Of a stretch of DNA of 64,000 nt, positions 3,155-61,374 are shown piece by piece. Under the pieces are notes generated by a model that did not search any database, was not told the DNA's origin, and was given only the letters and a program-made list of their open reading frames with translations. The stretch is from Pseudomonadota bacterium. Lineage in GTDB: Bacteria > Pseudomonadota > Gammaproteobacteria > Burkholderiales > Rhodocyclaceae. The translations under genes and the position numbers were made by a program. The stretch covers positions 1 through 64,000 of the forward strand of contig JAFEDK010000017.1 in the NCBI GenBank assembly GCA_018241665.1, given 5' to 3'. Every line of letters begins with the position of its first letter. The stretch's first letter is position 1.

Positions 3155-3219
3155 GTGGGGGCGAATTCATTCGCCAAAGTCGGCCGAACGAAGTCCGCGG
3201 GCGAATGAATTCGCCCCCT
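3155..3219. repeat. REPIN doublet (nirJ-nirN gap)
   Basis: Two inverted REP arms flank a 23-bp spacer. Each arm is itself near-palindromic around GAATTC (GCGAATTCATTCGC). The spacer reads in the 'reverse' orientation (ends GAACGAAGTCCGC). It starts 11 bp after the nirJ stop and ends 17 bp before the nirN start, so it would form a strong hairpin in the nirJN transcript. Confidence 0.9.
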
Positions 3220-3236
3220 CAAGGGACCGCAGCACC

Positions 3237-4796
3237 ATGATCAAACACCTACTCCACGCCATCGCCCTTGCTGCGCTCGCCTTCACCGCCCTGCCGGCCC
3301 AGGCCGGCGCGCCAGAACTCTTCGCCCAGCACTGCGCCAGCTGCCACGGCAGCAACCGGCTGGGCGTGATGGGGCCAGCCCTGTTGCCGGAAAGCCTCGA
3401 ACGCCTCAAGCGCAAGGACGCCGTCGCGACGATCCGTGACGGCCGCAGCGCGACGCAGATGCCGCCCTTCTCGGCCGTGCTGTCCGCCGCCGAGATCGAC
3501 GCCCTCGCTGACTGGATCTACTCGCCGGTGAGCCCCGCGCCCACGTGGAGCGCCGCCGACATCCGCGCCTCGCGCGTCGAACCCTATCCGCCCGGCAGCC
3601 TGCCGGACGCACGCCAGGGCGACGTGGCCAAGGCCGATCCGATGAACCTGTTCATCGTCGTCGAGGCCGGCGACCACCACGTCAGCGTGCTCGACGGCGA
3701 CCGCATGGAGCGCATCTTCCGCTTCCCGTCCCGCTACGCGCTGCATGGCGGCCCCAAGTTCACGCCGGACGGGCGTTACGTGTTCTTCGCGTCCCGCGAC
3801 GGCTGGGTCAGCAAGTTCGACATCTGGAACCTGAAGGTCGTCGCCGAGGTGCGTGCCGGCCTCAACACCCGCAACGCCGCCGTCTCCAGCGACGGGCGCT
3901 ACGTGGCGGTGGCCAACTACCTGCCCGGCAACCTGGCCATCTTCGACGCCGACCTCAAGCTGCTCAAGCTCATCGACGGCCGCAACCTGAAGGGCGACGC
4001 CGCTTCGCGCATCTCCGCGGTATACGACGCCGCGCCGCGCAAGAGCTTCGTGGTCGGCCTGAAAGATCTGCCCGAGATCTGGGAAATATCCTACGACCCG
4101 GCCGCCAAACCCTTCCACGATGGATACGTGCACGACTACAAGATGGGCGAGGCGATCGCCACGCCGGGCTACCTCAACCCGCGCCGCACGCAACTGGAAG
4201 AACCCCTCGACGACTTCTTCTTCACCCAGGACTACACCAACGTGGTCGGTGCCAGCCGGGACGGGCACGGCAAGGTGGTCAATCTCGATGTGCGCCGGCC
4301 GATCAGCAATCTGGACCTGCCCGGCATGCCGCACCTGGGTTCCGGCATTTCCTGGCTACGGGACGGCCATCGCGTCGTGGCCAGCACCAACCTGAAGGAC
4401 GCGCGGGTCAGCGTCATCGACATGCAGAACTGGCAGACCGTCGCCACCATCCCCACGCTGGGGCCCGGCTTCTTCCTGCGCAGCCATGAAAACAGCCCCT
4501 ACGCGTGGGTCGACTCGATGATGAGCCCGACCGCCCGGGACACCCTGCAGGTGATCGACAAGCAGAGCCTGCAGGTCGTCGCCCAGATCCGCCCCGAACC
4601 GGGCAAGACCTTCGCCCACGTGGAATTCGACCGTAACGGCCGCTACGTGATCGCCAGCCTGATGGAGAAAGATGGTGCGCTGATCTTCCTCGACGCGAAG
4701 ACCTTCAAGGAGATCAAGCGCCTGCCGGCCTCGAAGCCGATCGGCAAGTACAACCTGTTCAACAAGATCCAGCGCTCGGAAGGCACCAGCCACTAG
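3237..4796 (+). CDS. nirN: Periplasmic c-type cytochrome with heme d1-binding domain, NirN-like
   Basis: A Sec signal peptide (residues 1-23, ...LPAQA|GAP) is followed by a class I cytochrome c domain with CASCH at 33-37 and a candidate axial Met at 75 (QMPPF). An eight-bladed-propeller-like cytochrome d1 domain (about 110-515) follows, with repeated sheet motifs such as DGRYVFFASRDGWV. This architecture and the 519-aa length match NirN, the dihydro-heme d1 dehydrogenase that completes heme d1 in the periplasm and hands it to NirS. NirF lacks the covalent heme c domain. NirS itself is a possible confusion, but pairing with nirJ and overall divergence favour NirN. It is likely cotranscribed with nirJ. 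Confidence 0.85.
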   Translation: MIKHLLHAIALAALAFTALPAQAGAPELFAQHCASCHGSNRLGVMGPALLPESLERLKRKDAVATIRDGRSATQMPPFSAVLSAAEIDALADWIYSPVSPAPTWSAADIRASRVEPYPPGSLPDARQGDVAKADPMNLFIVVEAGDHHVSVLDGDRMERIFRFPSRYALHGGPKFTPDGRYVFFASRDGWVSKFDIWNLKVVAEVRAGLNTRNAAVSSDGRYVAVANYLPGNLAIFDADLKLLKLIDGRNLKGDAASRISAVYDAAPRKSFVVGLKDLPEIWEISYDPAAKPFHDGYVHDYKMGEAIATPGYLNPRRTQLEEPLDDFFFTQDYTNVVGASRDGHGKVVNLDVRRPISNLDLPGMPHLGSGISWLRDGHRVVASTNLKDARVSVIDMQNWQTVATIPTLGPGFFLRSHENSPYAWVDSMMSPTARDTLQVIDKQSLQVVAQIRPEPGKTFAHVEFDRNGRYVIASLMEKDGALIFLDAKTFKEIKRLPASKPIGKYNLFNKIQRSEGTSH

Positions 4797-4817
4797 TCCG
4801 GCGCCGAGCCGGCCCCC

Positions 4818-5177
4818 TCAGCAACCCAGCGCAGCGCGCTTGGCCTGATGAGCCTGCCGCTGCGCCGTCAGTTGCTCGATGGCCACCTTCGAGCGCGGGT
4901 CGCGCAGTGCAGCCTCCGCACCACGGATGACTTCCAGCAGTTCGGCGCACACTGCCACCTTGCCGGCGGCATCCAGATTCTCAGGAATGTCAGGGCTCCC
5001 GGTGGTCGGTGCCGCAGGCTCGGGCAACACGGCTCGCCGGGCCGGCTCTGCCACCGGCGCCGGCGCCTCTTCGCGGGGCTCGGCCTCCCGCCAGTTGTTC
5101 ACACCGCCATGCGTGGACCAATACGCCACCGCGCCCGTAAGCAGCACCGCGGCGACCATTACGCTACCTTCCCTCAT
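4818..5177 (-). CDS. Small membrane-anchored hypothetical protein
   Basis: About 119 aa from the start MREGSVMVAAVLLTG. A single N-terminal transmembrane segment (about 5-20) is followed by an acidic, Pro/Ala/Glu-rich linker (about 30-65) and a helical C-terminal part with two cysteines. No domain recognised. It is convergent with nirN (21 bp gap). Base use resembles its neighbours, so it is probably a real gene. Confidence 0.55.
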   Translation of the reverse strand: MREGSVMVAAVLLTGAVAYWSTHGGVNNWREAEPREEAPAPVAEPARRAVLPEPAAPTTGSPDIPENLDAAGKVAVCAELLEVIRGAEAALRDPRSKVAIEQLTAQRQAHQAKRAALGC

Positions 5178-5263
5178 CGTCGGCTCTCGCTGCACAAGGC
5201 GCGGAATGTACCATTCTGGGCACACCACTGCCCGTGCCGTCCGCCACGCGAGCGATCCGCCGC

Positions 5264-5277
5264 TTGAGCACGGTCAA
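5264..5277. promoter_or_regulatory. Candidate Dnr/FNR box upstream of the DUF2249 gene
   Basis: TTGAGCACGGTCAA keeps the TTGA-N6-TCAA frame of the FNR/Dnr consensus, with one symmetric mismatch in each half. Its centre is 74.5 bp upstream of the DUF2249 ATG at 5345. No good -10 hexamer is seen at the expected distance, so the call is tentative. Confidence 0.5.
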
Positions 5278-5344
5278 GGCCCGCGTTTCCGGCAGGGGCC
5301 AATCTGTCATGCCCCCTGAGCGGCCCCCAATCGGAGAAAACACC

Positions 5345-5581
5345 ATGACCGATGCCCTGCCCCCCGTCATTGTCGATGCCCGCGGCCTGATGCCGCCGGA
5401 GCCCTTGAACCTGACCCTCGAAGCCCTCGACACCCTGCCGCCGGGTGGCGAGGTGATCCTGCTGATCTACCGGGAGCCGACGCCGCTGTATGACATCCTG
5501 CGGCGCAACGGCTACACCCATCGCACCGAGATGAACAGCGATGGCGAATTCGCGATCCACATCCGCCACGCCGCGGCCTGA
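5345..5581 (+). CDS. DUF2249 domain protein
   Basis: A 78-aa protein spanning a whole DUF2249 (TusA/SirA-like fold) unit. VIVDARGLMPPEPLNLTLEALD is the typical N-terminal strand-helix, here without the TusA cysteine, and YDILRRNGYTHRTEM follows. Such proteins recur beside denitrification and NO-detoxification genes; their biochemical role is not settled. The ATG at 5345 is preceded by CGGAGAAAACACC; a longer in-frame start upstream has no ribosome site. A Dnr-like box lies upstream, and the gene is convergent with dnr (16 bp gap). Confidence 0.85.
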   Translation: MTDALPPVIVDARGLMPPEPLNLTLEALDTLPPGGEVILLIYREPTPLYDILRRNGYTHRTEMNSDGEFAIHIRHAAA

Positions 5582-5597
5582 GCGGCAGGCGGCGGCG

Positions 5598-6293
5598 TCA
5601 GTCGTGTTCGGCCAGGCGGGCGGCGTCGTGGATCACGATGTGCTTGCCCTGCACCGAGATCAGGCCGGCATCGGAGAGCTCGTGGAAGATCCGCGACAGG
5701 GTTTCCGGCGTCAGGCTCAGGCGCGACGCAATCACCTGCTTGCTGGTCGGCAGCTCGACGTTGTGGGTGCCGTCCTTCGGCGCGCAGGGCGCGCTTTCAG
5801 CCAGCTGCAGCAAGTAGCCGATGACCCGCTGGGTGGACGAGCGCAGCGCGTAGGACTCCACGTCCCGCACCATGGTGTGCAGGCGGATCGACATGCCGGC
5901 CAGCAGCTTGCGCGCAAAGCGCGGGTCCTGCTCGATCTGCTCGAACACCGCCGACGCGCCGATGTGCAGCACCAGCGTGTCGGCCAGCGCCTCACCGAGC
6001 ACCGGGTAGGGCTGGTCGAGGAACATCACCGCCTCGCCGAAGCTCTGCAGCGGCCCGAGGATCTCGACGACCTTCTCGTTGCCCTGGGCAGACGTGAAGG
6101 CCAGCTTGATCTGTCCCCACACCACCAGGAAGAAGCCCTTCGGCAGATCGCCGCGCTGGAACAGGCGGTCGCCCTTCTGCAGGCGCTTCTCCCGTGTCGC
6201 CGCCGCCAGCTGGGCCAGATCCTCCGGCGCCAGCGCGCTGAACAGGGGCATCCGGCTGAGCAGGCCGGGAATATCGATCTTGTCGGTGGACAT
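5598..6293 (-). CDS. dnr: Crp/Fnr-family regulator, Dnr type
   Basis: 231-aa regulator. A cyclic-nucleotide-binding-like sensor (about 12-130) precedes a dimerisation helix and a winged HTH (about 150-225). Recognition-helix residues E197, S200 and R201 (PETLSR) are the ExxSR set that contacts TTGAT in FNR. The N-terminal cysteine cluster of FNR is missing (only one Cys, in SAPCAP), so it should not carry an oxygen-labile 4Fe-4S cluster. This favours the NO-responsive DNR/NnrR class. It is divergent from nnrS across 91 bp. The boxes at 1880 and 5264 are its likely targets. Confidence 0.88.
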   Translation of the reverse strand: MSTDKIDIPGLLSRMPLFSALAPEDLAQLAAATREKRLQKGDRLFQRGDLPKGFFLVVWGQIKLAFTSAQGNEKVVEILGPLQSFGEAVMFLDQPYPVLGEALADTLVLHIGASAVFEQIEQDPRFARKLLAGMSIRLHTMVRDVESYALRSSTQRVIGYLLQLAESAPCAPKDGTHNVELPTSKQVIASRLSLTPETLSRIFHELSDAGLISVQGKHIVIHDAARLAEHD

Positions 6294-6384
6294 GGCGCGG
6301 GTTCTCGTGTTGGGCGAAGTACAACACCGGATTCTAACCCTCTCTGTCCGCCCGGAAACCTCTGCACGGAGTCCTTACCCCTTT

Positions 6385-7659
6385 ATGGATAAGCCCATTT
6401 CACTGCAGGCGCGCCCCACGGGTGCGGCGCCTCAACCCGCCACCGAGCCCCCCGCGTCGGGTGCCGCGGTCCTCTTCGCCGCCCCCCACCGCTCCATGTT
6501 CCTGGCCGGCGCGCTGCAGACCCTGCTGGCCTTCGCACCGTGGGCGTGGGAACTGCTGGCCCGCAACGGCCTGCTGCCGGCCCCCGCCTGGCCATGGCCG
6601 CCGGCCTGGGTACACGGCCTGTGGGCCGCCTACGGCATCTTCCCGTTCTTCGTGTTCGGCTTCCTGCTGACCGCCATGCCCCGCTGGCAGGGCATGCCCG
6701 ACACACCAGGCGCGGTGGCGCGCCTGCCGTGGCTGCTGCTGGCTACCGGCTGGCTGCTGTTCGACGCAGGCCTGTTCATCGTCACGCCAGCGCTGCGGAT
6801 TGCCGGGCTGGCGCTGGTACTGGCCGGCTGGCTGCTGGTGCTGCGCGCGCTGTGGCCGGTGGCCTTCAAGCCGGAGGCCCAGCGCAAGCACGCCGGCACG
6901 GCCTGGTTCGCTCTCGCCGCCGGCGCGCTCGGCCTCGTCGCCTGGCTGGCCTTCGCGGCAGGTGCCGAGCCGCTGGCGGCCCGCATCGGCGTGTCCATCG
7001 GCGTCTGGTGGCTGCTCGCCCCGCTGTTCATGGTGGTCAGCCACCGCATGATTCCCTTCTTCTCCTCGTCGGTACTGCCCAAGTACGAACTCGTCCGCCC
7101 GGACTGGGCACTACAGGTACTGGTCGGCGCCAGCCTGGTCCACGGCCTGCTGGCCATGGCCGGGTACGAAGCCTGGGCCTGGCCCACCGATCTGGCGGCC
7201 GCCGGCACGGCCCTGTGGCTGAGCTGGAAATGGCAGTTCCGGCGCAGCTTCGCAGTGCGCCTGCTGGCCATGCTGCACATCGGCTTCCTGTGGCTGGGCA
7301 TCGCCTGGCTGCTGGCGGGCGTGCAGGGCCTGCTGCACGCCTTCGGCATCACCACCCTGGGCCTGGCACCGCTGCACGCGATGGCCGTCGGCTTCTTCGC
7401 GACGATGACGCTGGCGATGGTGTCCCGCGTCACCCTCGGCCACTCGGGACGCCCGCTGGTGGCCGACGAACTGACCTGGCGGCTGGCCCTCGGCCTCCAT
7501 GCGGTCGCCGCAGTGCGGGTGCTGGCCGACCTGCTGCCGGGCGCCCAGACGGTGCTGCCGGCGGTTGCCGCCATCGGTTGGCTGGCCGTGTTCACCCCGT
7601 GGGTCGCCCGCCTGGTGCCGATCTACCTGAGCCGGCGCGCCGACGGCAAGCCGGGCTGA
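6385..7659 (+). CDS. nnrS: NnrS family heme/copper membrane protein
   Basis: 424-aa polytopic protein with about 12 hydrophobic helices and several membrane histidines (AAPHRSMFLAG, MVVSHRMIPFFSSS, PLHAMAVGFFATM, VTLGHSGRPL), as in NnrS. NnrS proteins are induced by NO-responsive regulators and relieve NO-dependent damage to iron metabolism. The start at 6385 (MDKPISLQ) gives the family's usual length. It is divergent from dnr; no clear Dnr box was found in the 91-bp gap. A strong hairpin follows at 7725-7750. Confidence 0.9.
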   Translation: MDKPISLQARPTGAAPQPATEPPASGAAVLFAAPHRSMFLAGALQTLLAFAPWAWELLARNGLLPAPAWPWPPAWVHGLWAAYGIFPFFVFGFLLTAMPRWQGMPDTPGAVARLPWLLLATGWLLFDAGLFIVTPALRIAGLALVLAGWLLVLRALWPVAFKPEAQRKHAGTAWFALAAGALGLVAWLAFAAGAEPLAARIGVSIGVWWLLAPLFMVVSHRMIPFFSSSVLPKYELVRPDWALQVLVGASLVHGLLAMAGYEAWAWPTDLAAAGTALWLSWKWQFRRSFAVRLLAMLHIGFLWLGIAWLLAGVQGLLHAFGITTLGLAPLHAMAVGFFATMTLAMVSRVTLGHSGRPLVADELTWRLALGLHAVAAVRVLADLLPGAQTVLPAVAAIGWLAVFTPWVARLVPIYLSRRADGKPG

Positions 7660-7724
7660 GCACGGCCCTCTCCGCTTTGCTGCGAGGCAGCGAAGCACAC
7701 CGTTTTCATGCGACCATGCGCGGA

Positions 7725-7750: not shown

Positions 7751-7776
7751 TTTCCCCAAACAACCGTGCTATCGAC

Positions 7777-9515: not shown

Positions 9516-9529
9516 GAGATGTGCGGCGT

Positions 9530-9652
9530 GGGCGAATGAATTCGCCCCTACGTGGGGCCGGGCGCCGGCTCCCCTGTGCGGATGCGTTCATTCAAAAACC
9601 CGGCGGAAATGGCAAGGCGCCGGTTTCCCCGTGGGGGCGAATTCATTCGCCC
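9530..9652. repeat. Reverse-order REP pair
   Basis: Two REP arms in reversed order relative to the REPINs: arm 9530-9551 (GGGCGAATGAATTCGCCC core then CTAC) and arm 9631-9652 (GTGGGGGCGAATTC head). The 79-bp interval contains two GGCGCCGG-CTCCCC/TTTCCCC-like stretches; the second directly abuts arm two, as in the pair at 11759. Confidence 0.8.
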
Positions 9653-11758: not shown

Positions 11759-11826
11759 GGGCGAATGAATTCGCCCCTACGGTGGATCAGGTGCAGGTTT
11801 CCCCGTAGGGGCGAATTCATTCGCCC
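11759..11826. repeat. Reverse-order REP pair
   Basis: Arms at 11759-11780 and 11805-11826, both of the CCCCTAC/GTAGGGG variant, arranged tail-to-tail around a 24-bp interval ending GGTTTCCCC. The same GGTTTCCCC precedes the second arm of the 9530-9652 pair, suggesting one element subtype. Confidence 0.85.
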
Positions 11827-19012: not shown

Positions 19013-19079
19013 GTGGGGGCGAATTCATTCGCCCTCGGACTTCGAGCAACCGACGGCGGGCGAATGAATTCGCCCCCAC
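19013..19079. repeat. REPIN doublet
   Basis: 67-bp doublet. Arms at 19013-19034 and 19058-19079; 'forward' spacer TCGGACTTCGAGCAACC followed by GACGGC. It lies between rdgC and bluB. Confidence 0.92.
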
Positions 19080-19884: not shown

Positions 19885-19890
19885 TTTTGT

Positions 19891-19955
19891 GTAGGCGAAT
19901 TCATTCGCCCACGGACTTCGATCAACCGGCTGAGGGCGAATGAATTCGCCCCCAC
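19891..19955. repeat. REPIN doublet upstream of bluB
   Basis: 65-bp doublet. The left arm has a shortened head (GTAGGCGAATTC). 'Forward' spacer CGGACTTCGATCAACCGGC. It sits in the 5' region between dbpA and bluB. Confidence 0.9.
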
Positions 19956-28552: not shown

Positions 28553-28591
28553 GGCATATCCCGGGGTTCAGCGGCCACGCGGGCTACCCCT

Positions 28592-28658
28592 GTGGGGGCG
28601 AATTCATTCGCCCCCAGCCGGTTGTTCGAAGTCCGGGGGCGAATGAATTCGCCCCCAC
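28592..28658. repeat. REPIN doublet inside ABC operon
   Basis: 67-bp doublet with a 'reverse' spacer (CAGCCGGTTGTTCGAAGTCC), between the permease and ATPase genes. Confidence 0.93.
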
Positions 28659-28695
28659 AAAGATCCCCCCCACAAAGATCCCCCCCACAAAGTTC
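28652..28695. repeat. 15-bp tandem array at REPIN end
   Basis: CACAAAGATCCCCCC repeated with period 15 (copies begin at 28656, 28671 and 28686, the last diverging as CACAAAGTT). The first copy begins within the REPIN tail, so the array looks like an expansion of the element's end plus flank. Confidence 0.75.
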
Positions 28696-28742
28696 ACTCC
28701 CAGAAGATTCGGCCCCACGGGATGGGCTCTCAAAGGCGTGGC

Positions 28743-29963
28743 TCATGCGCGGATCGCCTGCACCGGGTCCATCTTCGCCGCGCGGCGGGCCGGAATCAGC
28801 GCCGAGGCGAGGCCGACGCCGGTGGCCACCAGCGCCGCCAGCACGATGAAGCGCGGTTCCAGCTGGGCGGCGAACAGCGGGCTGCCGTCGGCATTGCGGT
28901 AGATCGCCGAGAACATGTTGAGCAGTCCGAAGGCCAGCAGGCTGCCGAGGATCGAGCCGACCGCCCCGACCAGCGCCCCCTGGATCAGGAAGACCTGCAG
29001 GATCATCGCCCGGCTGGCACCCATCGCGCGCAGGATGCCGATCTCCTTCTGCTTCTGGACCACGCTGACCACCAGCACGCTGGCGATGCCGAGGGCTACG
29101 ATGAGGATCACGAAGCTGCGGATCAGGTTGTTGGAAACGGTCTGGTTGCGCAGCGCGGCGAGGAGCTGGGCGTTGGTCTGCATCCAGCTGTCCACGGTGA
29201 GGCCGGTAGCGCCCTGCAGGCGGGTGGCGATGGCCTGGGCGTCGAAGATGTCGGCCACCGTCAGGTCCAGGTTGGACACCCCGCCGGGCAGGTCGAGCAG
29301 GCTCTGGGCCAGCGGCAACGTCACGAAGACCCAGCGGCGGTTGAGGTCCTTGTTGCCGATGTCGAAGATACCGCCCACCTGCAGCAGCTCGTCGCGCCCG
29401 TTGGGCAGCGCCACGCGCAGCTTGTCTTCCAGGCGGATGCCCAGGTCCTTGGCCAGCTCGGAACCGATCACTGCGCGGGTGCCGTCTACCGCGAAGCGGC
29501 CGGCAACCATGTATTCCTCCATGCGCACGATGCGCCGGTAGCGCTCGGCGTCGATGCCCATCAGCGCGACGGACTTGTTGGCCTGGCCGCGCACCGCGAA
29601 GGCCGGCCCGGTGACCGTCGGCGACACCGCGGTGACGCCGGGCATCGCGGCAGCCAGGCGGGCGACGTTCTCCCATTGGTCCACCGAGCGCAGGCGCTGC
29701 GCACGGGGCTCGATGACCACCGCCGCGGCCGGGTCGTCGAAGGCGCGGCGGTTGGCTTCCTCCAGCGGGCGGATCACCACGTGGGGCTGGGTGCCGAGCA
29801 CCCGGTCCACGATCTGCGCCTGCAACTGGGTGATCAGCTGGGTCAGGAAGACGATCACCGCCACCCCGCCGGTCGTGCCGGCAAGGATCAACAGGGTCTG
29901 CATGCGCCCCTCGCGCAGGAAACGCAGCGCAACCAGCGGCGCGAAGGGCAGGCGGAATCTCAT
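28743..29963 (-). CDS. ABC transporter permease, FtsX/MacB type
   Basis: 406 aa. TM1 near residues 20-45, a large periplasmic domain (about 50-270), then three TM helices (about 280-400), the four-TM FtsX-fold layout. Conserved [15 protein letters not shown] start and C-terminal [14 protein letters not shown] (typical of MacB/LolC/DevC permeases). Starts [10 protein letters not shown]. Works with the adjoining ATPase and membrane-fusion protein; cargo unknown. Confidence 0.88.
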
Positions 29964-30011
29964 GACGTCCGCCCCCTTGAGGCGAATGCACCCATCGGAG
30001 TGAATAACCCC

Positions 30012-30078
30012 GTGGGGGCGAATTCATTCGCCCGCGGACTTCGAACAACCGGCTGAGGGCGAATGAATTCGCCCCCAC
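30012..30078. repeat. REPIN doublet
   Basis: 67 bp, 'forward' spacer GCGGACTTCGAACAACCGGC; sits 49 bp upstream of the permease start. Confidence 0.93.
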
Positions 30079-30120
30079 GGGGGGTGCCCCTGCGGCGTGT
30101 CAGCGGCATCCGCCCAAGCT

Positions 30121-30187
30121 GTAGAGGCGACTTCATTCGCCCATCAACACTGTGCCGACGACCGCCGGCGAATGAATTCGCCCCCAC
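30121..30187. repeat. REPIN doublet, diverged
   Basis: 67 bp, 43 bp from the previous doublet. The left arm is mutated (GTAGAGGCGACTTCATTCGC, losing GAATTC) and the spacer has diverged (ATCAACACTGTGCCGACG). Probably an older copy. It ends 20 bp from the adaptor stop. Confidence 0.85.
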
Positions 30188-30207
30188 AGTGCATGGCCGG
30201 ACCATCA

Positions 30208-31446
30208 TCAGCGCATCATCCCCTGCGGCACCTGCACGCCGCCGACCTTGGGCTTCTTCGCCTCGCGGATGCGCAGTTGGTCGCCTTCCAGCGCGCCGGA
30301 GGCCGGCAACACGGCCAGATCGCCCTCGGCAAGGCCCTTGAGGATCTCCACCTGGCCGATGCCGGCGAGGCCGAGCTGCACGTCGACGCGCACCGCCACG
30401 CCGTCACGGGCCAGCAGCACCCACGGCTTGCCGCCGTCGAGATCACGCACCGCCTCGGTCGGCAGCACCAGGGTCGCGTCCCGGCGGCCGGTGACGGTTT
30501 CCACCGACACGGTCATGTCGGGGCGCAGGAAATCCGGCGGCGTCGGCACGCGGAAACGGATCTCGACGGTGCCGCGCTGGGGGTCCACCGCTGGGGCCAG
30601 GTAGTACAGCGTCGCGTCGAAGGGCCGCGCCGGATAGGCGTCGGCGACGCCACGGGCCGGCTGGCCAGGCTGCAAGAGGCGCAGGTTCTTCTCGTCCACC
30701 GTCGCGTAGACGCGGGTCTCGCCGCTGTCGGCCAGTTCCAGCAGCACCTTGCCGGCCGCTGCCACGTCGCCGGGCTCGGCCTTGCGGCTGAGCACCACGC
30801 CCGTCGACGGCGCGGTGAGGGTCAGCAGCGCGGCCCGCGCGCGGGCATTGGCGAGCTGGGCACGGGCCTGGGCCACGCGGGCCTCGGCGGCAATCTTCTC
30901 GGTGCCGCCCGGCTGCTGGGCGGCCAGCTGGGCGCGGGCCGCGGCCACCGCGGATTCCGCATTGGCAGCGTTGCGCAGCGCATCGTCAGCCTTGGACTGG
31001 GCATAGAAACCACGACCGACCAGCTGGCGGGCACGCTCGGCCTCGGCGCGGGCCACAGCCTGGTTCGCTTCGGCCTGGGCCAGTTGCTGGGCCGCCACCG
31101 GGCGGCCGAGGGCTTCGATCTGGGCCAGGCGCGCCTCGGCTTCGGCCAGTGCAGCCACCGCCTGGCCGATCAGCGCCTCGGCGTCGTCGGCGCGCAGGCG
31201 GGCCAGCACCTGGCCGGCCTTCACCTTGTCGCCCTCGCGCACGGCGACTTCGAGCACCGTGGCGGCCAGCGGGCTGCCGATGGAAATCCGCGCCGGCGTG
31301 ACGATGCGGCCGGTCGCCACCACCGACTGGGTCAGCGGCGCCTTGCGCACCGCCGCCACATCCACCTCGCGCCCCTTCGGCCACAGCAGCACAGCCGCAA
31401 CCGCGCCGGCCGCGGCCAGCGCCAGGATCAGCCCGCGGCGCGTCAC
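30208..31446 (-). CDS. Periplasmic adaptor (membrane fusion protein), HlyD/MacA family
   Basis: 412 aa from a GTG start (VTRRGLILAL) that overlaps the tlpA stop by 4 bp. N-terminal membrane anchor (about 5-20). A first lipoyl half (GRIVTPARISIGSPLAATV...GDKVKAGQVLARL), a long Ala/Glu/Arg helical hairpin (about 90-190), the second lipoyl half (LTAPSTGVVLSRKAEPGDVAAAG), then beta-barrel and membrane-proximal domains. This is the adaptor of a MacAB-like exporter. Upstream in-frame codons fall inside tlpA and are not used. Confidence 0.88.
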   Translation of the reverse strand: MTRRGLILALAAAGAVAAVLLWPKGREVDVAAVRKAPLTQSVVATGRIVTPARISIGSPLAATVLEVAVREGDKVKAGQVLARLRADDAEALIGQAVAALAEAEARLAQIEALGRPVAAQQLAQAEANQAVARAEAERARQLVGRGFYAQSKADDALRNAANAESAVAAARAQLAAQQPGGTEKIAAEARVAQARAQLANARARAALLTLTAPSTGVVLSRKAEPGDVAAAGKVLLELADSGETRVYATVDEKNLRLLQPGQPARGVADAYPARPFDATLYYLAPAVDPQRGTVEIRFRVPTPPDFLRPDMTVSVETVTGRRDATLVLPTEAVRDLDGGKPWVLLARDGVAVRVDVQLGLAGIGQVEILKGLAEGDLAVLPASGALEGDQLRIREAKKPKVGGVQVPQGMMR

Positions 31447-37544: not shown

Positions 37545-37570
37545 CACCGGGCACCTGTGGGGCTGCTCCT

Positions 37571-37640
37571 GTGGGGGCGAAGCTGTGGGGGCGAAGCTGT
37601 GGGGGCGAAGCTGTGGGGGCGAAGCTGTGGGGGCGAAGCT
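37571..37640. repeat. 14-bp tandem array, five copies, at REPIN head
   Basis: GTGGGGGCGAAGCT is repeated exactly five times (37571, 37585, 37599, 37613, 37627) and runs directly into the head GTGGGGGCGAATTC of the REPIN at 37641. The unit is the first ten bases of the REP arm plus AGCT. Confidence 0.95.
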
Positions 37641-37707
37641 GTGGGGGCGAATTCATTCGCCCGCGGAGGTCAAGCCACGCGCGGTGGGCGAATGAATTCG
37701 CCCCCAC
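37641..37707. repeat. REPIN doublet
   Basis: 67 bp: arms 37641-37662 and 37686-37707; diverged 'forward' spacer GCGGAGGTCAAGCCACGC. Follows the HPP gene. Confidence 0.93.
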
Positions 37708-39821: not shown

Positions 39822-39888
39822 GTGGGGGCGAATTCATTCGCCCTCAGCGCGTAACTTGACCACCGCGGGCGAATGAATTCGCCCCCAC
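39822..39888. repeat. REPIN doublet
   Basis: 67 bp with a 'reverse'-type spacer (TCAGCGCGTAACTTGACC). It separates zntB from the convergent end of the glycan operon, so it may serve both as terminator. Confidence 0.93.
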
Positions 39889-39898: not shown

Positions 39899-40639
39899 CT
39901 AGCGACGGATCGGCGGGTGCTTGGGGGTGTTCTTGGCGAGCAGCTTCCAGGCCACGCCGAAGACGTCGTCGCCACGCGACACGGCCTTGCGCGGCAGGCT
40001 CAGCAGATCGTCCTCCGGCGTCGCGGCAGCCCGCTCGCAGGTGGTGCCGCTGAGGTAGCCGGCGGCGGCGGCGGCCTCGACGCAGCGCAGGTCGTGGCTG
40101 CCGTAGGGGTAGCAGAAATGGGCCACCCGCCGGCCGAGCAGGTCTTCCAGCGCGGTCTTGCTGGAGTTCATTTCATCGACAATCCGTTCCGTGCCCTGTT
40201 CGGCAAGGCGCAGGTGGCTGTGGGAATGGGAGCCGATGGTGAAGCCGAGATCCTGCACCTCGCGCAACTGGGCGGCGTTCATCAACGGCGCCGGTTCCGG
40301 TCCCTTGCCGGCATCCCAGCTGGAGGTCTGGCCGATCAGCCCGCTCACCGCATACACCGTCGCCGGGTAGCCATGCTCCTTGAGCACCGGCGCGGCGTGG
40401 GTCAGGAAATCCACGTAGGCGTCGTCGAAGGTCAGCACCAGCGGCCGCGATGGCAGCGGCCCTTCTCCACGCAGGCCAGCCACCGCCTCGTCGAGGCCGA
40501 TCACCGAATAGCCCAGCAGCTTGAACAGCGTCATCTGCGCCCGGAAGCGCGGCAGGTGGCAGTACAGCGCGCCATGGGCCTTGACCCGGCCGGGGAAGTC
40601 ACCGACCCGGTGGTACATCAGGATCTGCACCCGCGTCAT
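39899..40639 (-). CDS. Polysaccharide deacetylase (NodB), copy 2
   Basis: 246 aa. NodB homology: LVLTFDDAYVDFL (motif 1, catalytic Asp and metal Asp), GSHSHSHLRL (motif 2, H-x3-H), and HFCYPYGSHDLR. Probably removes N- or O-acetyl groups from a surface glycan or its lipid-linked precursor. No signal peptide. Paralogue of the gene at 43831-44583. Last gene of the operon; start overlaps the upstream glycosyltransferase stop by 4 bp. Confidence 0.9.
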   Translation of the reverse strand: MTRVQILMYHRVGDFPGRVKAHGALYCHLPRFRAQMTLFKLLGYSVIGLDEAVAGLRGEGPLPSRPLVLTFDDAYVDFLTHAAPVLKEHGYPATVYAVSGLIGQTSSWDAGKGPEPAPLMNAAQLREVQDLGFTIGSHSHSHLRLAEQGTERIVDEMNSSKTALEDLLGRRVAHFCYPYGSHDLRCVEAAAAAGYLSGTTCERAAATPEDDLLSLPRKAVSRGDDVFGVAWKLLAKNTPKHPPIRR

Positions 40640-43834: not shown

Positions 43835-44583
43835 GCATGCACGGGCCGGCGGAGTGCGGCCTGCTTCGAGGTGTTCTTGGTGAGCAGCTTCCACAGCACG
43901 CCGAAGGCGGTGTTGCCCTGGGAGACGGCCTTGCGCGGCAGCGTCAGCAGGTCGTCGGCTGGCGTGGCGACGGCGCGCTGGCAGGTCGTGCCGGTGACAT
44001 AGCCGGCAGCGGCAGCGGCTTCCACGGCGCGCATGTCGTGGCTACCGTAGGGATAGCAGAAATGATTCACCGGCGCACCGAGCACGTCTTCGAGCATGCG
44101 CTTGCTGGCCGTCAGCTCCTCAGCGATGCGCGGCGTATCCATCTGGACCAGACGCGGATGGCTGACCGTGTGGGAGCCCACCGTGAAACCCATCGCGTGG
44201 ATCTCCCGCAGCTGGGCGGCGCTCATCAGCGGGGCGGGAACGAGGCCTTCCGGCGTGACCCACTCGGAGGTCTTGCCAAGCAGGCCGGCCACCGCGTAGA
44301 TCGTCGCCGGATAGCCATGGGCCTGCAGCACGGGGGCGGCCTGCTCGAGGAAGTCCACGTAGGCGTCGTCGAAGGTCAGCACCACCGGCTTGGGCGGCAG
44401 GGTTTTCCCGCCGCGCAGGGCCGCCGCCGCATCGTCCAGGCTTACCACCGAGTAGCCGCAGTAACGCAGCATGGCCATCTGCGCCTTGAAGCGCGGCAGG
44501 TGGCAGATCTGCGCGCGATGACTGGGCATGCGCTGCGGAAAATGCCCCACCCGGTGATACATCAGGATGTGGATACGGCTCAT
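43831..44583 (-). CDS. Polysaccharide deacetylase (NodB), copy 1
   Basis: 250 aa. VVLTFDDAYVDFLEQAAPVL, GSHTVSHPRL and HFCYPYGSHDMR give a complete NodB catalytic set. Closely similar along its full length to the protein at 39899-40639, pointing to duplication. Start MSRIHILMYHRVG. The two copies bracket three glycosyltransferase genes. Confidence 0.9.
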   Translation of the reverse strand: MSRIHILMYHRVGHFPQRMPSHRAQICHLPRFKAQMAMLRYCGYSVVSLDDAAAALRGGKTLPPKPVVLTFDDAYVDFLEQAAPVLQAHGYPATIYAVAGLLGKTSEWVTPEGLVPAPLMSAAQLREIHAMGFTVGSHTVSHPRLVQMDTPRIAEELTASKRMLEDVLGAPVNHFCYPYGSHDMRAVEAAAAAGYVTGTTCQRAVATPADDLLTLPRKAVSQGNTAFGVLWKLLTKNTSKQAALRRPVHA

Positions 44584-54339: not shown

Positions 54340-54341
54340 AC

Positions 54342-56587: not shown

Positions 56588-57218
56588 CGGCAGTTTCGGA
56601 ATCGGTGAGCGGGTCCCAGATCAGGCGCGGGTCGAAGGTCAGCGCGGCGAACATCGTCAGCACCACCACGGCACCGAAGGCCAGCGCAGCCGGCCCCGTG
56701 TCGACGGTGGCAAAACCCCGGAACTGTACCAGCGCCACCAGCAGCGTGATCACGTAGATGTCCAGCATCGACCAGCGTCCGACGAATTCCACCAGCCGGT
56801 ACAGGCGGGCGCGCTGCATCACCCGGTGCCGGGAACGCAGCTGCACGGACGCGGTGAGATAGGCCAGCGCCAGGATCTTCAGCAGGGGCACGACCACGCT
56901 GGCGAAGAACACCACGACAGCCAGCGGCCACTGCCCGTCCACCCACAGGAAGATCACCCCGCTCATGATGGTGTCCACCTGGTGGCTGACCAGCGAGGTG
57001 GTGATCATGATCGGCATCAGGTTGGCCGGCAGGTAGAGCAACGCCGCCGCCGCGAGCAGGGCCCAGGTGGTGCTGATGCTGGCCGGCTTGCGCAAATGTA
57101 ACGGCGCCGCACAGCGCGGGCAGCGCAGCGGGCCGGCAGCCTCCGGCGCCTGCGCGAGCTGGCCGCAGACATGGCAGCTCAGCAGGCCGGCCTGGCGGGC
57201 GGTGAGCCGGGGCTTCAC
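56580..57218 (-). CDS. PqiA C-terminal-half protein
   Basis: 212 aa from a GTG start overlapping the stop of the upstream half by 4 bp. A zinc ribbon (LLSCHVCGQLAQAP...LRCPRCAAPLHLRKP) precedes four TM helices (SISTTWALLAAAALLYLPANLMPIM...). Corresponds to the second half of the fused E. coli PqiA, an inner-membrane partner of PqiB. Confidence 0.88.
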   Translation of the reverse strand: MKPRLTARQAGLLSCHVCGQLAQAPEAAGPLRCPRCAAPLHLRKPASISTTWALLAAAALLYLPANLMPIMITTSLVSHQVDTIMSGVIFLWVDGQWPLAVVVFFASVVVPLLKILALAYLTASVQLRSRHRVMQRARLYRLVEFVGRWSMLDIYVITLLVALVQFRGFATVDTGPAALAFGAVVVLTMFAALTFDPRLIWDPLTDSETADD

Positions 57219-57841
57219 GCGGGCTCCGCGGCAACTCGCCACAACAGGCGGCGGTCGAAAGCCCGGCCGGCCAGCGTGAGGACCAGGATCAGCGCCGCCG
57301 TGGCCCAGAAGGCCGTGCCCAGGATCACCGACCCGGAGTGGGCCAGCTTGACCAGCGACACAAGCATGCCGAGCAGGAAGACCTCCATCATGCCCCACGG
57401 CTGCACGGACAACACCAGGCGGAAGAAGGCGGCCACGCGTGGCGAACGGCAGCCCAGGCGCAGCGGCAGCAGCACCAGCAGGATCATCAGCATCTCGAGC
57501 AGCGGGAACAGCTGCGCGGTGACGAAGACCAGCGCCGCCACCGGCTGCATGCCGATCTGCCACAGGTTGCGCACCGCCGCGAACAGCGTCACCTCGGCAT
57601 GATGCCCCTGCATCTCCAGGCCCATCAGCGGGAAGGCATTGGCCAGCACATACAGGATGGCCGCGGTCAGGGTGTAGGCCAGCGTCCGGTCCAGGCTGTC
57701 TGGCGGATTGCGCGCCAGTTCGGCCCCACAACGGGCGCAGCGAGCCGTCTCGCCAGCCTGGAGGGGCGCATCGTGCTGCAGCAGGTCGCACTCATGGCAG
57801 GCGACCAGTGGGACGGGCGAAATTGGCGGATCGACGCGCAT
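57215..57841 (-). CDS. PqiA N-terminal-half protein
   Basis: 208 aa. Zinc ribbon (VACHECDLLQHD...ARCARCGAELARNP) followed by four TM helices (DRTLAYTLTAAILYVLANAFPLMGL...). Corresponds to the first half of PqiA. The operon order pqiA1-pqiA2-pqiB-pqiC, each overlapping the next, is unbroken. Confidence 0.88.
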   Translation of the reverse strand: MRVDPPISPVPLVACHECDLLQHDAPLQAGETARCARCGAELARNPPDSLDRTLAYTLTAAILYVLANAFPLMGLEMQGHHAEVTLFAAVRNLWQIGMQPVAALVFVTAQLFPLLEMLMILLVLLPLRLGCRSPRVAAFFRLVLSVQPWGMMEVFLLGMLVSLVKLAHSGSVILGTAFWATAALILVLTLAGRAFDRRLLWRVAAEPA

Positions 57842-57925
57842 GGGCAGGCCACGGACAATGACGTTCCATTGTGCGGTGCACGGCCCGTGCCCTGCAAGAT
57901 CGGGCCGGGTCGCCGGCCAGGCCGC

Positions 57926-58390
57926 TCAGCGCGGCGCGGCGGTCTTGCTGGCCGCCTGCTCCGGCGGCGCAACCTGGCTGGCTACGCCATCCGCCGGCGT
58001 CGACGCGCCGGGCGCACCGGAAGCAGACGGCTGGACCACCGCCAGCACGATGGGCGCGTTGCTGTCCCGCTGCCGCAGGATCACCCGGTCGGCGAGCACC
58101 CGTTCGATGCGCAGATCGTCATGATAGGCCTGGCCTTCGGAGAGCATTTCGGGCGGGCGGCCGTTGTCGGACAGGATCACCATCCCGGGCGTCGTCGCGT
58201 TCCCGAGAATGACCCCCTTGGCTACCAGACCCATGGCCTCGGCGGCCGGGGCTGGCAGATCCTCGTCCTGGTAGTTGCCGGAACCCACCATGTTGATCCA
58301 GCCGGCATCCTCGGCAATCCACAGGGCCGCCACCGCCAGCACCACGATGCTGAAGAGTACGCGCCGCAGATCGATTCCACCCATCTCCAT
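57926..58390 (-). CDS. Membrane-anchored protein with GspC-like domain
   Basis: 154 aa from MEMGGIDLRRVLFS, just after GAGGGGAGA. One TM (about 9-27), then a compact beta domain (about 50-115: GLVAKGVILGNATTPGMVILSDNG... SEGQAYHDDLRIERVLADRVILR) resembling the HR domain of type II secretion GspC, and a Pro/Ala-rich tail. No other secretion genes are nearby. Function unknown. Confidence 0.65.
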   Translation of the reverse strand: MEMGGIDLRRVLFSIVVLAVAALWIAEDAGWINMVGSGNYQDEDLPAPAAEAMGLVAKGVILGNATTPGMVILSDNGRPPEMLSEGQAYHDDLRIERVLADRVILRQRDSNAPIVLAVVQPSASGAPGASTPADGVASQVAPPEQAASKTAAPR

Positions 58391-58474
58391 TCTCCCCTCT
58401 TGTGCGGGACCCACCGCCCCGGCTTCCCTTCGGCGGCCCCGATTGCGTGAAAAGCGCAGGATTCGACACTCAGT

Positions 58475-59338
58475 TTAGCGCTGGTCCTGCGTGAACTCGC
58501 CTGCGGTTTTCCCTGCAACGAAAGCGAACACGTCGCGCACGAAACGCTCCCGCTCCCACAGGTGCGGCGCGTGATCGACGCCCTCGTAGATGTGCAGCAG
58601 CGCATCCGGAATGCGCTGCTGCACGAAATGGGCAGTACCCGTCGAATAGAAGTTGCTCGCCCCGCCATAGACCAGCAGCGCCGGCACCGGAATGGCCTGC
58701 AGCACGTCCCGGTAGTCGGCGGCGGTCAGGCTGCGCCAGCACTCGATCAGCGGCCCGGGCTCGAGGGCCTGCAGGCGCTGGCGGGCGGTCTGGATGCCAT
58801 TGCCGTTCTCGGCATACTTGCTCCGCGCCCTTTCGTTGTGGCCGTCGGCTGCCAGGCGCAACACCGCCTCGGCGAAGTCCTGCTGCAGCGCGCCGATGAA
58901 GACCGCATTGCGGCCGGCGTCGAAATCGCCGTAGATGCCGCTCTTCCAGTCGTCGTCGGTGATGAGGCGCGGCGACTGGTCGATGAAGACCAGCCGGGAC
59001 AGACGGCCGGCGCCGAAATCGCGCAGGTATTGCCACAGGGTCAGCGCGCCCATCGAGTGGCCGACCGCCACCACCTGGTCGAGGCGGTAGTGATCGAGCA
59101 GGTTCTGCAGGTCGCGGGCCATCCGCGCGACGGTCGGCACGGTGTCGGTCCGCAGCCCATGCCCGCCATGGCCGCGGGCGTCCCAGCGATACACGCGGAA
59201 GCGGGCCTCGAAGGCTTCGATGAAGGGGTTCCAGTCCCGGTGGGAAGACGTCCAGCCGTGCAGCAGCACCAGCGGCGGGCCCTCGCCGGAGATCTTCAGG
59301 TGGAGCTTTTCGCCGTCGTCGGCAAGGAAGTGGTCCAT
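58475..59338 (-). CDS. Alpha/beta hydrolase
   Basis: 287 aa. Oxyanion region PLVLLHGWTSSHRDW, WDARGHGGHG, nucleophile elbow VAVGHSMGALTLW, acid near LLVYGGASNFY, and the catalytic His in GVDHAPHLWERE. Cytoplasmic, substrate unknown (esterase, haloperoxidase or MhpC-like). Start taken at MDHFLADDGEKLHL; a TTG 22 codons upstream is possible. Confidence 0.88.
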   Translation of the reverse strand: MDHFLADDGEKLHLKISGEGPPLVLLHGWTSSHRDWNPFIEAFEARFRVYRWDARGHGGHGLRTDTVPTVARMARDLQNLLDHYRLDQVVAVGHSMGALTLWQYLRDFGAGRLSRLVFIDQSPRLITDDDWKSGIYGDFDAGRNAVFIGALQQDFAEAVLRLAADGHNERARSKYAENGNGIQTARQRLQALEPGPLIECWRSLTAADYRDVLQAIPVPALLVYGGASNFYSTGTAHFVQQRIPDALLHIYEGVDHAPHLWERERFVRDVFAFVAGKTAGEFTQDQR

Positions 59339-59393
59339 GGGCCTGGCGGGAATCGGTGGAAGCCCGAGTGTAGCGGACAAATATGGCGACAGA

Positions 59394-59915
59394 TCAACCG
59401 TCAACCGGATGCTGCGGGGTTTTCAGCGTACGCTGGTAGAAGCCCACGTCGAGCCAGCCCCCGAACTTGAAACCGACTTCCTTCAAGGTGCCCCCGTGCA
59501 CGAAGCCGAGCTGCTCGTGCAGCGCGATGCTGCCGGTGTTGGCCATATCGATGACGCCGACCAGCAGGTGGTAATCCTGGGCCGTGGCCGCTTCCACCAG
59601 ACGTTCCAGCAAGGCCCGCCCGATGCCCTTGCCGCGCTGCTCGCGGTGCACATAGACGGAATGCTCGACGGTGTATTTGTAGGCCGGAAAGGCGCGGAAC
59701 GGGCCGTAGCTGGCGAAACCCCGCAGCGCGCCGGCTTCGTCCACGGCGCCGATCACCGGGTAATTGCCGGCCGCCTTGGCGGCGAACCAGGCCGTCATGC
59801 TGTCGCGGGTACGCGGCTGGTAGTCGTAGAGAGCGGTGGAGGTGGCGATGGCCTCGTTGAAGATGGCCAGGATCGCTTCGCCATGCTCGGCGAGGGTGCA
59901 GGTAACGAATTTCAT
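59394..59915 (-). CDS. GNAT acetyltransferase, phosphinothricin-acetyltransferase-like
   Basis: About 173 aa from MKFVTCTLAEHG (an ATG six codons upstream is possible). N-terminal IFNEAIATSTALYDYQPRT, acetyl-CoA site VYVHREQRGKGIGRALLERLVE, and C-terminal GFVHGGTLKEVGFKFGGWLDV are the Pat/YncA pattern. Homologues acetylate methionine sulfone/sulfoximine or phosphinothricin. Adjacent to cobC, likely coincidental. Confidence 0.88.
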   Translation of the reverse strand: MKFVTCTLAEHGEAILAIFNEAIATSTALYDYQPRTRDSMTAWFAAKAAGNYPVIGAVDEAGALRGFASYGPFRAFPAYKYTVEHSVYVHREQRGKGIGRALLERLVEAATAQDYHLLVGVIDMANTGSIALHEQLGFVHGGTLKEVGFKFGGWLDVGFYQRTLKTPQHPVDG

Positions 59916-59988
59916 CGGCGAGAGACGGGACATGGGACGCGGGGACAAGCCCGATTGTGCCCCAATCCTCGGCTCAGCCAATGCATGC

Positions 59989-60540
59989 TCAACGATTGAA
60001 CCAGCGCAGCAGCGTGCCCCAGTCGTGGAGGTCGAGGCGGGTCACTTCGCCACAGGCGAAGTCGAGGCCGAGCCAGTGCTCCGCCGGCAGCTTGAGCAGG
60101 TGGCCGGCCAGCGCGCGCAGCGGGCCGCCGTGGGCGACCACCACCGCGGCTGGCGGCGGCGCGGCCTGCAGCTCGGCGAGAAAGTCGTGGACGCGGGCCG
60201 CCATCTGGCGCGGCGACTCGCCGCCCGGCGGCGCGAAATCCAGCGGCGCGTCGGCCCACGCGTCGAGGGCGGCGCGGCCGATGTCGTCGTAACTGCGCCC
60301 TTCCCATTCGCCGAAGTGGATCTCCTTCAGGCGCGGCTCCAGCCGCGGCGTGCCGAGGGCTTCGGCCAGCAGGCGGGCGCGGGCCAGCGGGCTCGCGTAC
60401 AGCGCAAACTCCGCCGGCAACAGCGGACGCAGACGCGTCGCCACGTCGACGGCGGACTCGGCCAGCCCCAGGTCGGTCTGGCCGTAGCAGATCCCCGGCG
60501 CCACGGCGGGCCGGGGATGACGGATCAGGTAAAGCTCCAC
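59989..60540 (-). CDS. cobC: Alpha-ribazole phosphatase / histidine phosphatase CobC
   Basis: 183 aa. Phosphohistidine motif LIRHPRP (His8), [25 protein letters not shown] and the second His in [12 protein letters not shown]. Removes phosphate from alpha-ribazole phosphate or cobalamin 5'-phosphate in nucleotide-loop assembly. Overlaps the cobS end by 16 bp. Confidence 0.9.
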
Positions 60541-61298
60541 GCGGCGAGCATCCCCAGGTAGATGGCGATTTCGGCGAGCTGCTGGGTGGCGCCCAGGCAG
60601 TCACCGGTATAACCGCCGAGGCGGCGGGCGAACTTGCGCGCCGCCGCCACCGCCACCAGCGCGGTGACCAGCAGCGCCGCCAAGGCTTCCAGCGGCGTCA
60701 GCAGCAGCAGCGGCACGACCCCGGCCAGCGTGGCGATGCCCAGCTCGGTGGCACTCGGGCGGCGCGCTACCGGCGCCGACTTGGCGCTGTCGTCGCTGCG
60801 TGCATAGTCGAGCACCGCCATCACGCTGACCGCGGCGAGACGCGACAGGGGATGGGCCACCAGCAGCGCGGCGAGCACCGGGTAGTCGTCGTCGGCACCC
60901 AGGTCGGCGAGGGCCAGGTATTTGGCGAGCAGCAGCAGCACCAGGCCGATGGCCCCGTAGCTGCCGATCCGTGAGTCCTTCATGATCGCCAGCACCTGGT
61001 CCTTGGTCCATCCGCCGCCGAGGCCGTCGCAGGTGTCGGCCCAGCCGTCCTCATGGAAGGCGCCGGTGGCGCGGATGGTCGCCGCCATCGCCAGCACCAC
61101 CGCCAGGTCCACCGGCAGCAGCTGCGCCGCCAGCCAATAGACCACCGCGCCGATCAGGCCGATCAGCCAACCGACCAGCGGCAGGTAGCGCGCAGCCCGC
61201 CCCAGCTTGTCCGGCGCGAAGTCCACCCAGCCCGGCACCGGCAGGCGGCTGAAGAAGGCGATGGCGATGAAGATCAGCTCGAGCTGGGCGCGGATCAT
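60525..61298 (-). CDS. cobS: Adenosylcobinamide-GDP ribazoletransferase CobS
   Basis: 257 aa, six to seven TM helices. [31 protein letters not shown], and [21 protein letters not shown] are the conserved CobS blocks. Joins alpha-ribazole to GDP-cobinamide at the inner membrane. A REPIN lies 9 bp upstream of its ATG, between it and cobT. Confidence 0.93.
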
Positions 61299-61307
61299 GG
61301 CAATACC

Positions 61308-61374
61308 GTGGGGGCGAATTCATTCGCCCTCAATCGGTTGAGCGGAGTCCGCGGGCGAATGAATTCGCCCCCAC
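61308..61374. repeat. REPIN doublet between cobT and cobS
   Basis: 67 bp, 'reverse' spacer TCAATCGGTTGAGCGGAGTC. Positioned 9 bp upstream of cobS and may affect its translation. Confidence 0.93.

What the first reader, a model, noticed from the sequence alone, without database searches (positions are those of the whole stretch)
3155..61374. A family of 67-bp REPINs with oriented spacers in intergenic regions
Nine doublets (3155, 19013, 19891, 28592, 30012, 30121, 37641, 39822, 61308) share the same plan: inverted arms with a near-palindromic core GGGCGAATTCATTCGCCC, a ~23-bp spacer and a total of 65-67 bp. The spacer is asymmetric (CGGACTTCGA-CAACCG) and occurs in both orientations, so these are mobile units rather than simple palindromes. 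All lie between genes. The known model (REPINs moved by RAYT tyrosine transposases) fits, but no RAYT is in this window.
Basis: partly seen in the sequence, partly recalled or inferred. Interest (0 to 1): 0.7.

Follow-up and report, generated by a model that had tools for sequence, protein, structure and literature searches.

The report
REPIN mobile repeats growing tandem tails
The nine doublets are ordinary REPINs, tiny DNA hairpins thought to be spread through bacterial genomes by a single-strand transposase; less ordinary, some carry private short tandem arrays fused to one end, which may be traces left by that enzyme.

Summary
In detail: all nine doublets exist, eight of 67 bp and one of 66 bp, between genes. 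They belong to a genome-wide family: 759 core copies (up to 1 mismatch) in the 5.43-Mb genome, 0 for the reversed control. The genome has one Y1 transposase hit, a REP-associated tyrosine transposase (RAYT), with perfect REPINs of this family on both sides. Related species lack most of the window's copies (6 of 9, 7 of 9, 7 of 8 absent). The REPIN/RAYT reading is supported and, so far, ordinary. A unit is the 5' end of the REP, a local filler and a final T. All 23 have T before the head (20 CT, 3 TT), against 112 of 243 arms without such arrays. Two other genera with different REPs and their own RAYTs show the same arrangement. TnpA-REP enzymes are published to cut at C|T, so I propose that RAYT nicking seeds the arrays (about 50%); plain replication slippage is the main rival.

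The parts
3155..3220 (-). REPIN, 66 bp, spacer reversed (22 nt), 1 mismatch per arm
   Evidence: absent in G006, degenerate copy in G013 and G014
9530..9551 (-). single REP (guide GTAG), head towards the next REP
9631..9652 (+). single REP
   Evidence: 12-13 bp at this site in G006, G013, G014
11759..11780 (-). single REP (guide GTAG)
11805..11826 (+). single REP (guide GTAG)
19013..19079 (+). REPIN, perfect arms
   Evidence: hairpin fold z -9.4 (71 nt with flanks)
19889..19955 (+). REPIN, 2 mismatches in left arm
   Evidence: in G006 only one arm and a head remnant remain
28592..28658 (-). REPIN, perfect arms, between MacB-like permease and ABC ATPase genes
   Evidence: site empty in G006, G013, G014
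28659..28702 (-). tandem head array fused to the 28592 REPIN, period 15
30012..30078 (+). REPIN, perfect arms, between HlyD-like and MacB-like genes
   Evidence: 5 bp between aligned flanks in G006, G013, G014
30121..30187 (.). REPIN, diverged (3 + 1 mismatches), orientation not assigned
37557..37640 (+). tandem array of head units CTGTGGGGGCGAAG in phase with the next REPIN, period 14
37641..37707 (+). REPIN, perfect arms
39822..39888 (-). REPIN, perfect arms
   Evidence: empty in G006, G013, G014
61308..61374 (-). REPIN, perfect arms, between a CobS gene and a PF02277 gene
   Evidence: empty in G006, G013, G014

Best explanation
These are REPINs: non-autonomous mobile units made of two inverted REPs (5'-GTGG guide plus an 8-bp stem-loop) around a 23-nt spacer, spread in trans by the single RAYT (Y1 tyrosine transposase, 149 aa) encoded at C3:133855-134301 of the same genome. 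Shown here: the family, its copy number, the RAYT between matching REPINs, the predicted hairpin, empty orthologous sites in related species, and arrays fused to REP heads. Inferred from the published biochemistry of TnpA-REP enzymes: the RAYT binds a REP as single-stranded hairpin, cuts at C|T beside it, holds a 5'-phosphotyrosine and leaves a 3'-OH. For the arrays I propose that the nick at C|T directly 5' of the head gives a 3' end which is extended a few bases into the head, stalls at the hairpin, re-anneals one unit upstream and is sealed, each round adding one unit (filler + T + GTGG...). Probability of the REPIN/RAYT identity 0.95; of RAYT-dependent array growth 0.5.
For: Copy number 369 + 390 against 0 reversed. 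RAYT: PF01797 33.1 bits, REP_Tyr_transpos 150.1 bits, only PDB match 4er8 TnpArep; REPINs 41 nt beyond its 3' end and 113 nt before its 5' end. Doublets better kept than singles: 0.51 against 1.11 mismatches per arm. Hairpin fold z -8.6 to -10.8 in the 4 of 9 window copies folded. Empty sites. Arrays: 23 of 266 arms, all with T at -1, against 112 of 243 others, Fisher 9e-8; 14 of 222 arms and p 2.3e-5 after dropping six stretches whose choice could favour arrays. A looser short-period test gives 31 arms, 30 with T (26 CT, 4 TT) and 1 TC, whereas 32 arms in long-period repeats, mostly whole REPINs, show no such rule (CC 15, CT 10, TC 5, TA 1, TT 1). In another genus (G027) 15 of 49 arms have arrays, 14 of 15 at CT against 15 of 34 (p 0.0013). 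Unit heads follow the REP of each genome: GTGGGGGC in G000, GTGGGAGC in G027 and G249, GTAGGGGC in G003. Of 54 short tandem repeats in the G000 sample 30 abut a REP head and 1 a tail; in G027 21 and 0 of 39.
Against: No transposition or cleavage was observed. The guide is GTGG in 198 and GTAG in 46 of 266 arms but does not covary with CC or CT before it (p 0.69), and the published guide logic (GTGG gave CC in one enzyme) would let CC ends be cut too, yet none of the 23 arrays sits on CC. G006 has no RAYT hit (730 contigs) but still two arrays in 89 arms, one longer than its G000 ortholog (14 against 3 units). No bias to one GC-skew strand (11 of 23). In the contiguous stretch C51:20001-300000 only 3 of 59 arms have arrays and the T rule is not significant alone (p 0.26). 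3 of 23 arrays are TT, not CT. In G027 T at -1 is near-universal (45 of 49), so T itself is uninformative there (p 0.30). Outside the family no genome exceeds chance: 3 matches in 376 genomes against 7 for the reversed pattern.
Confidence: 0.9

Rival explanations
1. The arrays come from replication slippage alone: the long REPIN stem stalls the polymerase, which slips back on the G-run of the head. RAYT spreads REPINs but has no part in the arrays.
For: In G000, 22 of 23 arrays include 4-8 nt of the head (the test itself required at least 4), as expected for stalling at the stem foot; arrays persist and differ in length in G006 without a detected RAYT; some leftmost units follow a chance G-run (my reading, not counted).
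Against: Slippage gives no reason for T at -1 in 23 of 23 arrays when 131 of 243 other arms lack it, nor for CT in 14 of 15 arrays in G027 against 15 of 34.
Confidence: 0.4
2. The REPINs are relics: the RAYT is a domesticated host gene and the population no longer moves.
For: G006 keeps 223 REP core copies with no RAYT found; at some sites relatives keep only degenerate copies.
Against: Arms are perfect in 132 of 210 doublet halves, and five window sites are empty in all three relatives compared.
Confidence: 0.15
3. The doublets are selected cis-elements (terminators, mRNA stabilisers) placed one by one, not mobile units.
For: All nine lie between genes; three sit at the junctions of what looks like a MacB-type exporter operon. 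Terminator or transcript function was not tested.
Against: Near-identical 67-bp units at unrelated loci, empty orthologous sites, and a matching RAYT.
Confidence: 0.03

Closest known systems
REPINs of Pseudomonas fluorescens SBW25 (Bertels and Rainey 2011, PMC3116915; passages and section 12 seen)
   Same: Inverted REP doublet with spacer, predicted hairpin, extragenic, doublets better conserved than singlets, RAYT in the genome.
   Different: Different REP sequence; here 67 bp with a spacer of 23 nt in 90 of 105 doublets. What I saw of the paper describes larger tandem arrangements of whole REPs, not 11-16-nt head arrays.
Group 3 REPtrons of Stenotrophomonas and Marinomonas (Corneloup et al. 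2021, PMC8266576, passages and sections 11, 20, 29 seen; Nunvar et al. 2013, PMC3686654, passages seen)
   Same: In stenotrophomonads GTRG is directly followed by 8-9 perfectly complementary bases, as here; cleavage beside the REP at CT; different REPs around RAYT genes at one syntenic place (orthogroups), as between G000 and G003 here.
   Different: Guide here is mostly GTGG; cleavage was not tested; head arrays are not mentioned in what I saw.
GTAG palindromic families (Di Nocera et al. 2013, PMC3733652; passages and section 5 seen)
   Same: Dimers with the GTAG ends outside, most 20-100 bp apart; clusters repeated in tandem with flanking DNA.
   Different: Its consensus sequences are in figures that are not held, so whether this very REP is listed there is unknown; no 11-16-nt head arrays in what I saw.

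Membership tests
REPIN | Two REPs in inverted orientation, heads outward, short spacer | tested here: met
   9 of 9 in the window; 105 doublets in 859,632 bp, spacer 23 nt in 90
REPIN | REP = GTRG tetranucleotide plus palindrome | tested here: met
   GTGG 198, GTAG 46 of 266 arms
REPIN | High copy number, extragenic | tested here: met
   759 core copies; 9 of 9 window doublets between genes; extragenic location not scored genome-wide
REPIN | Folds as one hairpin in single strand | tested here: met
   4 of 9 window copies folded, z -8.6 to -10.8; prediction only
REPIN | Cognate RAYT flanked by the same REPs in the genome | tested here: met
REPIN | Sites filled in one lineage and empty in another | tested here: met
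   6 of 9 (G006), 7 of 9 (G013), 7 of 8 (G014) window doublets absent; movement itself not observed
REPIN | RAYT cuts these REPs | not testable with these tools
   needs an enzyme assay
RAYT (TnpA-REP) | Y1 transposase domain and REP_Tyr_transpos profile above cut-off | tested here: met
   33.1 bits PF01797 (cut-off 23); 150.1 bits NF047646 (cut-off 80)
Group 3 RAYT | Group assignment by phylogeny | not tested
   suggested only by the perfect palindrome next to GTRG

The most novel reading that the evidence does not exclude
REP heads act as generators of private minisatellites: the RAYT nicks at C|T beside the REP, and each failed or aborted round leaves one more copy of (filler + T + guide). 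The arrays would then be a readable in vivo record of RAYT activity at each site, a class of bacterial minisatellite made by a domesticated single-strand transposase, present in at least three genera of one family.
Probability: 0.45. Interest if true: 0.8.

Novelty: new variant of a known kind. Interest (0 to 1): 0.55.

Why it matters
How REPs spread is unresolved; [quoted passage not shown] If the head arrays come from RAYT nicks, they give a natural, countable trace of the enzyme acting in living cells at the predicted dinucleotide, and make the mechanism testable by comparing array lengths with and without RAYT. They also account for a large share of the short tandem repeats in the samples read: 30 of 54 in G000 and 21 of 39 in G027 abut a REP head (samples not random).

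Tried and rejected
Guide-target covariation inside one arm: none. Strand bias of arrays by GC skew: none, 11 of 23. GTAG-headed arrays by strict pattern: 1 of 249 family genomes (G027, 2 matches), against 3 control matches in three other genomes; two shorter GTAG arrays are seen in 17 arms of one G003 stretch. Class-wide search: 3 of 377 genomes, G000 and two with 2 and 1 matches, against 7 control matches in five genomes, so nothing beyond chance outside the family; the pattern fits only GTGGG heads. REPIN in plasmids: no match. The identical core as text in print: 0 papers. The first regex scan undercounted mismatched arms and was replaced. A head-unit count with another definition gave 27 of 266 arms, CT 23 and TT 4, in line. 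Organism not named: the one named-genome scan gave six relatives of the RAYT at 48-59% identity, with records near the window's own possibly left out.

Sampling. The 41 own stretches are not random. Those were mostly chosen where one search listed REPs; six (L137, L152-L156) lie at or beside matches, whose query held an array, and repeats the test without those six. The G006 stretches were chosen at G006 REP positions, so shared sites there (16 of 26 present) are overcounted; the window set is not so chosen. G027 stretches were partly chosen at array positions and RAYT genes, so 15 of 49 is no genome-wide rate; 3 of the 49 arms are expected by the reversed control. Rows dropped: doublets without collinear flanks (26, 12 and 11 of 105 kept). 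One of the 23 arrays has period 6 and may be chance. In the end-dinucleotide asymmetry repeats of whole REPINs were not reduced to one.
Full report
What is there. The nine doublets are real. Eight are 67 bp, one (3155) is 66 bp. Each is REP - spacer - inverted REP, with REP = GTGGGGGCGAATTCATTCGCCC: a GTGG tetranucleotide and an 8-bp stem GGGCGAAT/ATTCGCCC around TC. The window also has four unpaired REPs (9530, 9631, 11759, 11805). No RAYT lies in the window: the only Y1_Tnp hit of the genome is on contig C3.

Genome scale. The window is the first 64 kb of contig C8 of a 5.43-Mb genome in 55 contigs, 99.95% complete. The 17-nt core with up to one mismatch occurs 369 times forward and 390 reversed, the reversed-pattern control 0 times. 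I read 41 stretches of this genome (859,632 bp with the window): 266 arms up to 5 mismatches (reversed sequence: 1), forming 105 doublets and 56 singles; the spacer is 23 nt in 90 of 105 doublets. Arms in doublets carry 0.51 mismatches on average, singles 1.11, as PMC3116915 reports for its REPINs (passages).

Polarity. The 77 spacers of 23 nt, counting whole-REPIN repeats once, can be oriented to a shared consensus beginning GCGGA (18.3 bits; 20 shuffled sets at most 2.8). The two ends differ: over 90 doublets the arm on the GCGGA side is preceded by CT 47 and CC 19 times, the other arm by CT 34 and CC 39 times (Fisher 0.0036).

The transposase. C3:133855-134301 (minus strand) encodes 149 aa: PF01797 Y1_Tnp, NCBIfam REP_Tyr_transpos 150.1 bits against cut-off 80; its only PDB sequence match is 4er8, TnpArep. 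REPINs with perfect arms lie 41 nt beyond its 3' end and 113 nt before its 5' end. The neighbouring 473-aa gene is found in most genomes of the genus, and G003, G004 and G011 carry a RAYT match within about 500 bp of it, in G011 in two pieces, so the gene seems inherited in place. In the G003 stretch the REP is GTAGGGGCGACTTCAGTCGCCC: an A-T stem pair is replaced by C-G. Such changes of REP around a RAYT at one place are described in PMC3686654 (passages).

Variation between species. Among 23 genomes of the genus, core counts run from 0 to 759; after G000 come 223 (G006), 28, 23, 19 and 13. A RAYT relative is found in 9 of 23, the own genome included; none in G006, G013 or G014. These three align with the window in long syntenic blocks, about 93% identical in the longest, 84-97% around the REPIN sites. 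Of the nine window doublets 6 are absent in G006, 7 in G013 and 7 of 8 in G014. The sequences show it directly: flanks separated by 182 bp with the REPIN at 28592 overlap by 12 bp in all three relatives, and the 253-bp stretch with the REPINs 30012 and 30121 is 5 bp there. These sites lie between co-directional genes for an HlyD-like, a MacB-like and an ABC ATPase protein, by inference one exporter operon. The differing stretch is longer than 67 bp, so I could not read a clean insertion or target duplication.

Head arrays. Just 5' of the GTGG head, in phase with it, some arms carry a tandem array private to the locus. With periods of 4 to 30 nt allowed, 23 of 266 arms (core up to 3 mismatches) qualify; 22 periods lie at 11-16 nt, one is 6; random positions give 15 of 3,600. 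A unit is the first 4-8 nt of the REP (11 in one; the test asks for at least 4), a filler that differs between loci, though a few are alike, and a final T. The dinucleotide before the head is CT in 20 and TT in 3 of the 23; among the other 243 arms 112 have T (Fisher 9e-8; perfect arms only, 3.7e-7). Without six stretches whose choice could favour arrays: 14 of 222 arms, p 2.3e-5; in the contiguous C51:20001-300000 alone 3 of 59, not significant. A looser test adds eight short arrays, seven with T; in the same call the 32 arms caught in long-period repeats, mostly whole REPINs, follow no such rule (T in 11 of 32), which serves as internal control. Arrays favour the GCGGA side: 12 of 90 doublets on that side only, 2 on the other only, 3 both (binomial 0.013). 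By TRF, 30 of 54 short tandem repeats of the sample abut a REP head and 1 a tail; tails of doublets have only 23 nt of room, which weakens that contrast.

Beyond this genome. A pattern of three heads with CT was searched in 249 genomes of the family: 4 have it, G000 177, G027 (genus g6) 233, G006 13, G249 (genus g48) 12; the reversed control gave 6 in G027, 2 in G175 and 1 in G212. In a class sample 3 of 377 have it, G000 and two with 2 and 1 matches, against 7 control matches, so outside the family nothing exceeds chance. G027 and G249 are single-contig genomes, each with two RAYT genes over the cut-off, and their REPs differ from this one beyond the GTGGG start; in the three places read in each, the arrays run straight into a REPIN head. 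In 645 kb of G027, 15 of 49 arms have arrays, periods 12-30, with 4-16 nt of the arm in the unit; 14 are at CT, against 15 CT of 34 without array (p 0.0013). Units copy the head of the local REP, so I take arrays to grow from REPs rather than to be their targets. At two loci the array is shared by G000 and G006 with different lengths: 3 against 14 units of 16 nt, and an 11-nt array.

How it works. PMC8266576 (passages and sections 11, 20, 29) reports that TnpA-REP recognises REP as single-stranded hairpin, cuts C|T 5' or 3' of it (one enzyme also CA), links to the 5' phosphate and leaves a 3'-OH that could prime synthesis or attack; the GTAG motif acts as guide in one system. The array rule fits a nick at C|T directly before the head. 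I infer that the 3' end is extended a few bases into the head, stalls, re-anneals one unit upstream and is joined. This would explain the T rule, the few head bases per unit and the local filler. Shown: anatomy and statistics. Inferred: nick, extension, re-annealing, and that this RAYT moves these REPINs. Against the array model: the published shift to CC with GTGG guides is not mirrored (0 of 23 arrays on CC), G006 holds arrays without a detected RAYT (2 of 89 arms against 23 of 266, p 0.053), and no strand bias is seen.

Known or new. REPINs and RAYTs are known and this is a new member. Head arrays of this kind did not appear in the listings, nor in what I saw of five papers, from a library that lacks most subscription journals; larger tandem repeats of whole REPs are known and occur here too (113-116 bp on C3).

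Noticed in passing
L032:4473-5115 and L032:12280-12685 (C3 near the RAYT): Whole REPINs repeated in tandem every 113-116 bp (6 and 4 copies) close to the RAYT gene.
   Followed up: partly
window 28553-28736 and 29954-30208: REPINs lie at the junctions of a MacB-type exporter gene set that is tightly packed in three relatives; effect on expression unknown.
   Followed up: partly
window 19013-19079 against G006 (L107): G006 has a REPIN in the same intergenic space with the spacer reading the other way: inversion or independent insertion.
   Followed up: no
window 63626-63872: Cobalamin riboswitch, 96.3 bits, about 1.2 kb from the PF02277 gene.
   Followed up: no
window 39903-40202, 40315-40513 and 43847-44146, 44259-44457: Stretches about 74-75% identical, 3,944 bp apart; the first copy overlaps a polysaccharide deacetylase gene.
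   Followed up: no
G006 genome: 223 REP core copies but no RAYT hit in 730 contigs, and none beside the gene that neighbours the RAYT elsewhere: recent loss or assembly gap.
   Followed up: partly
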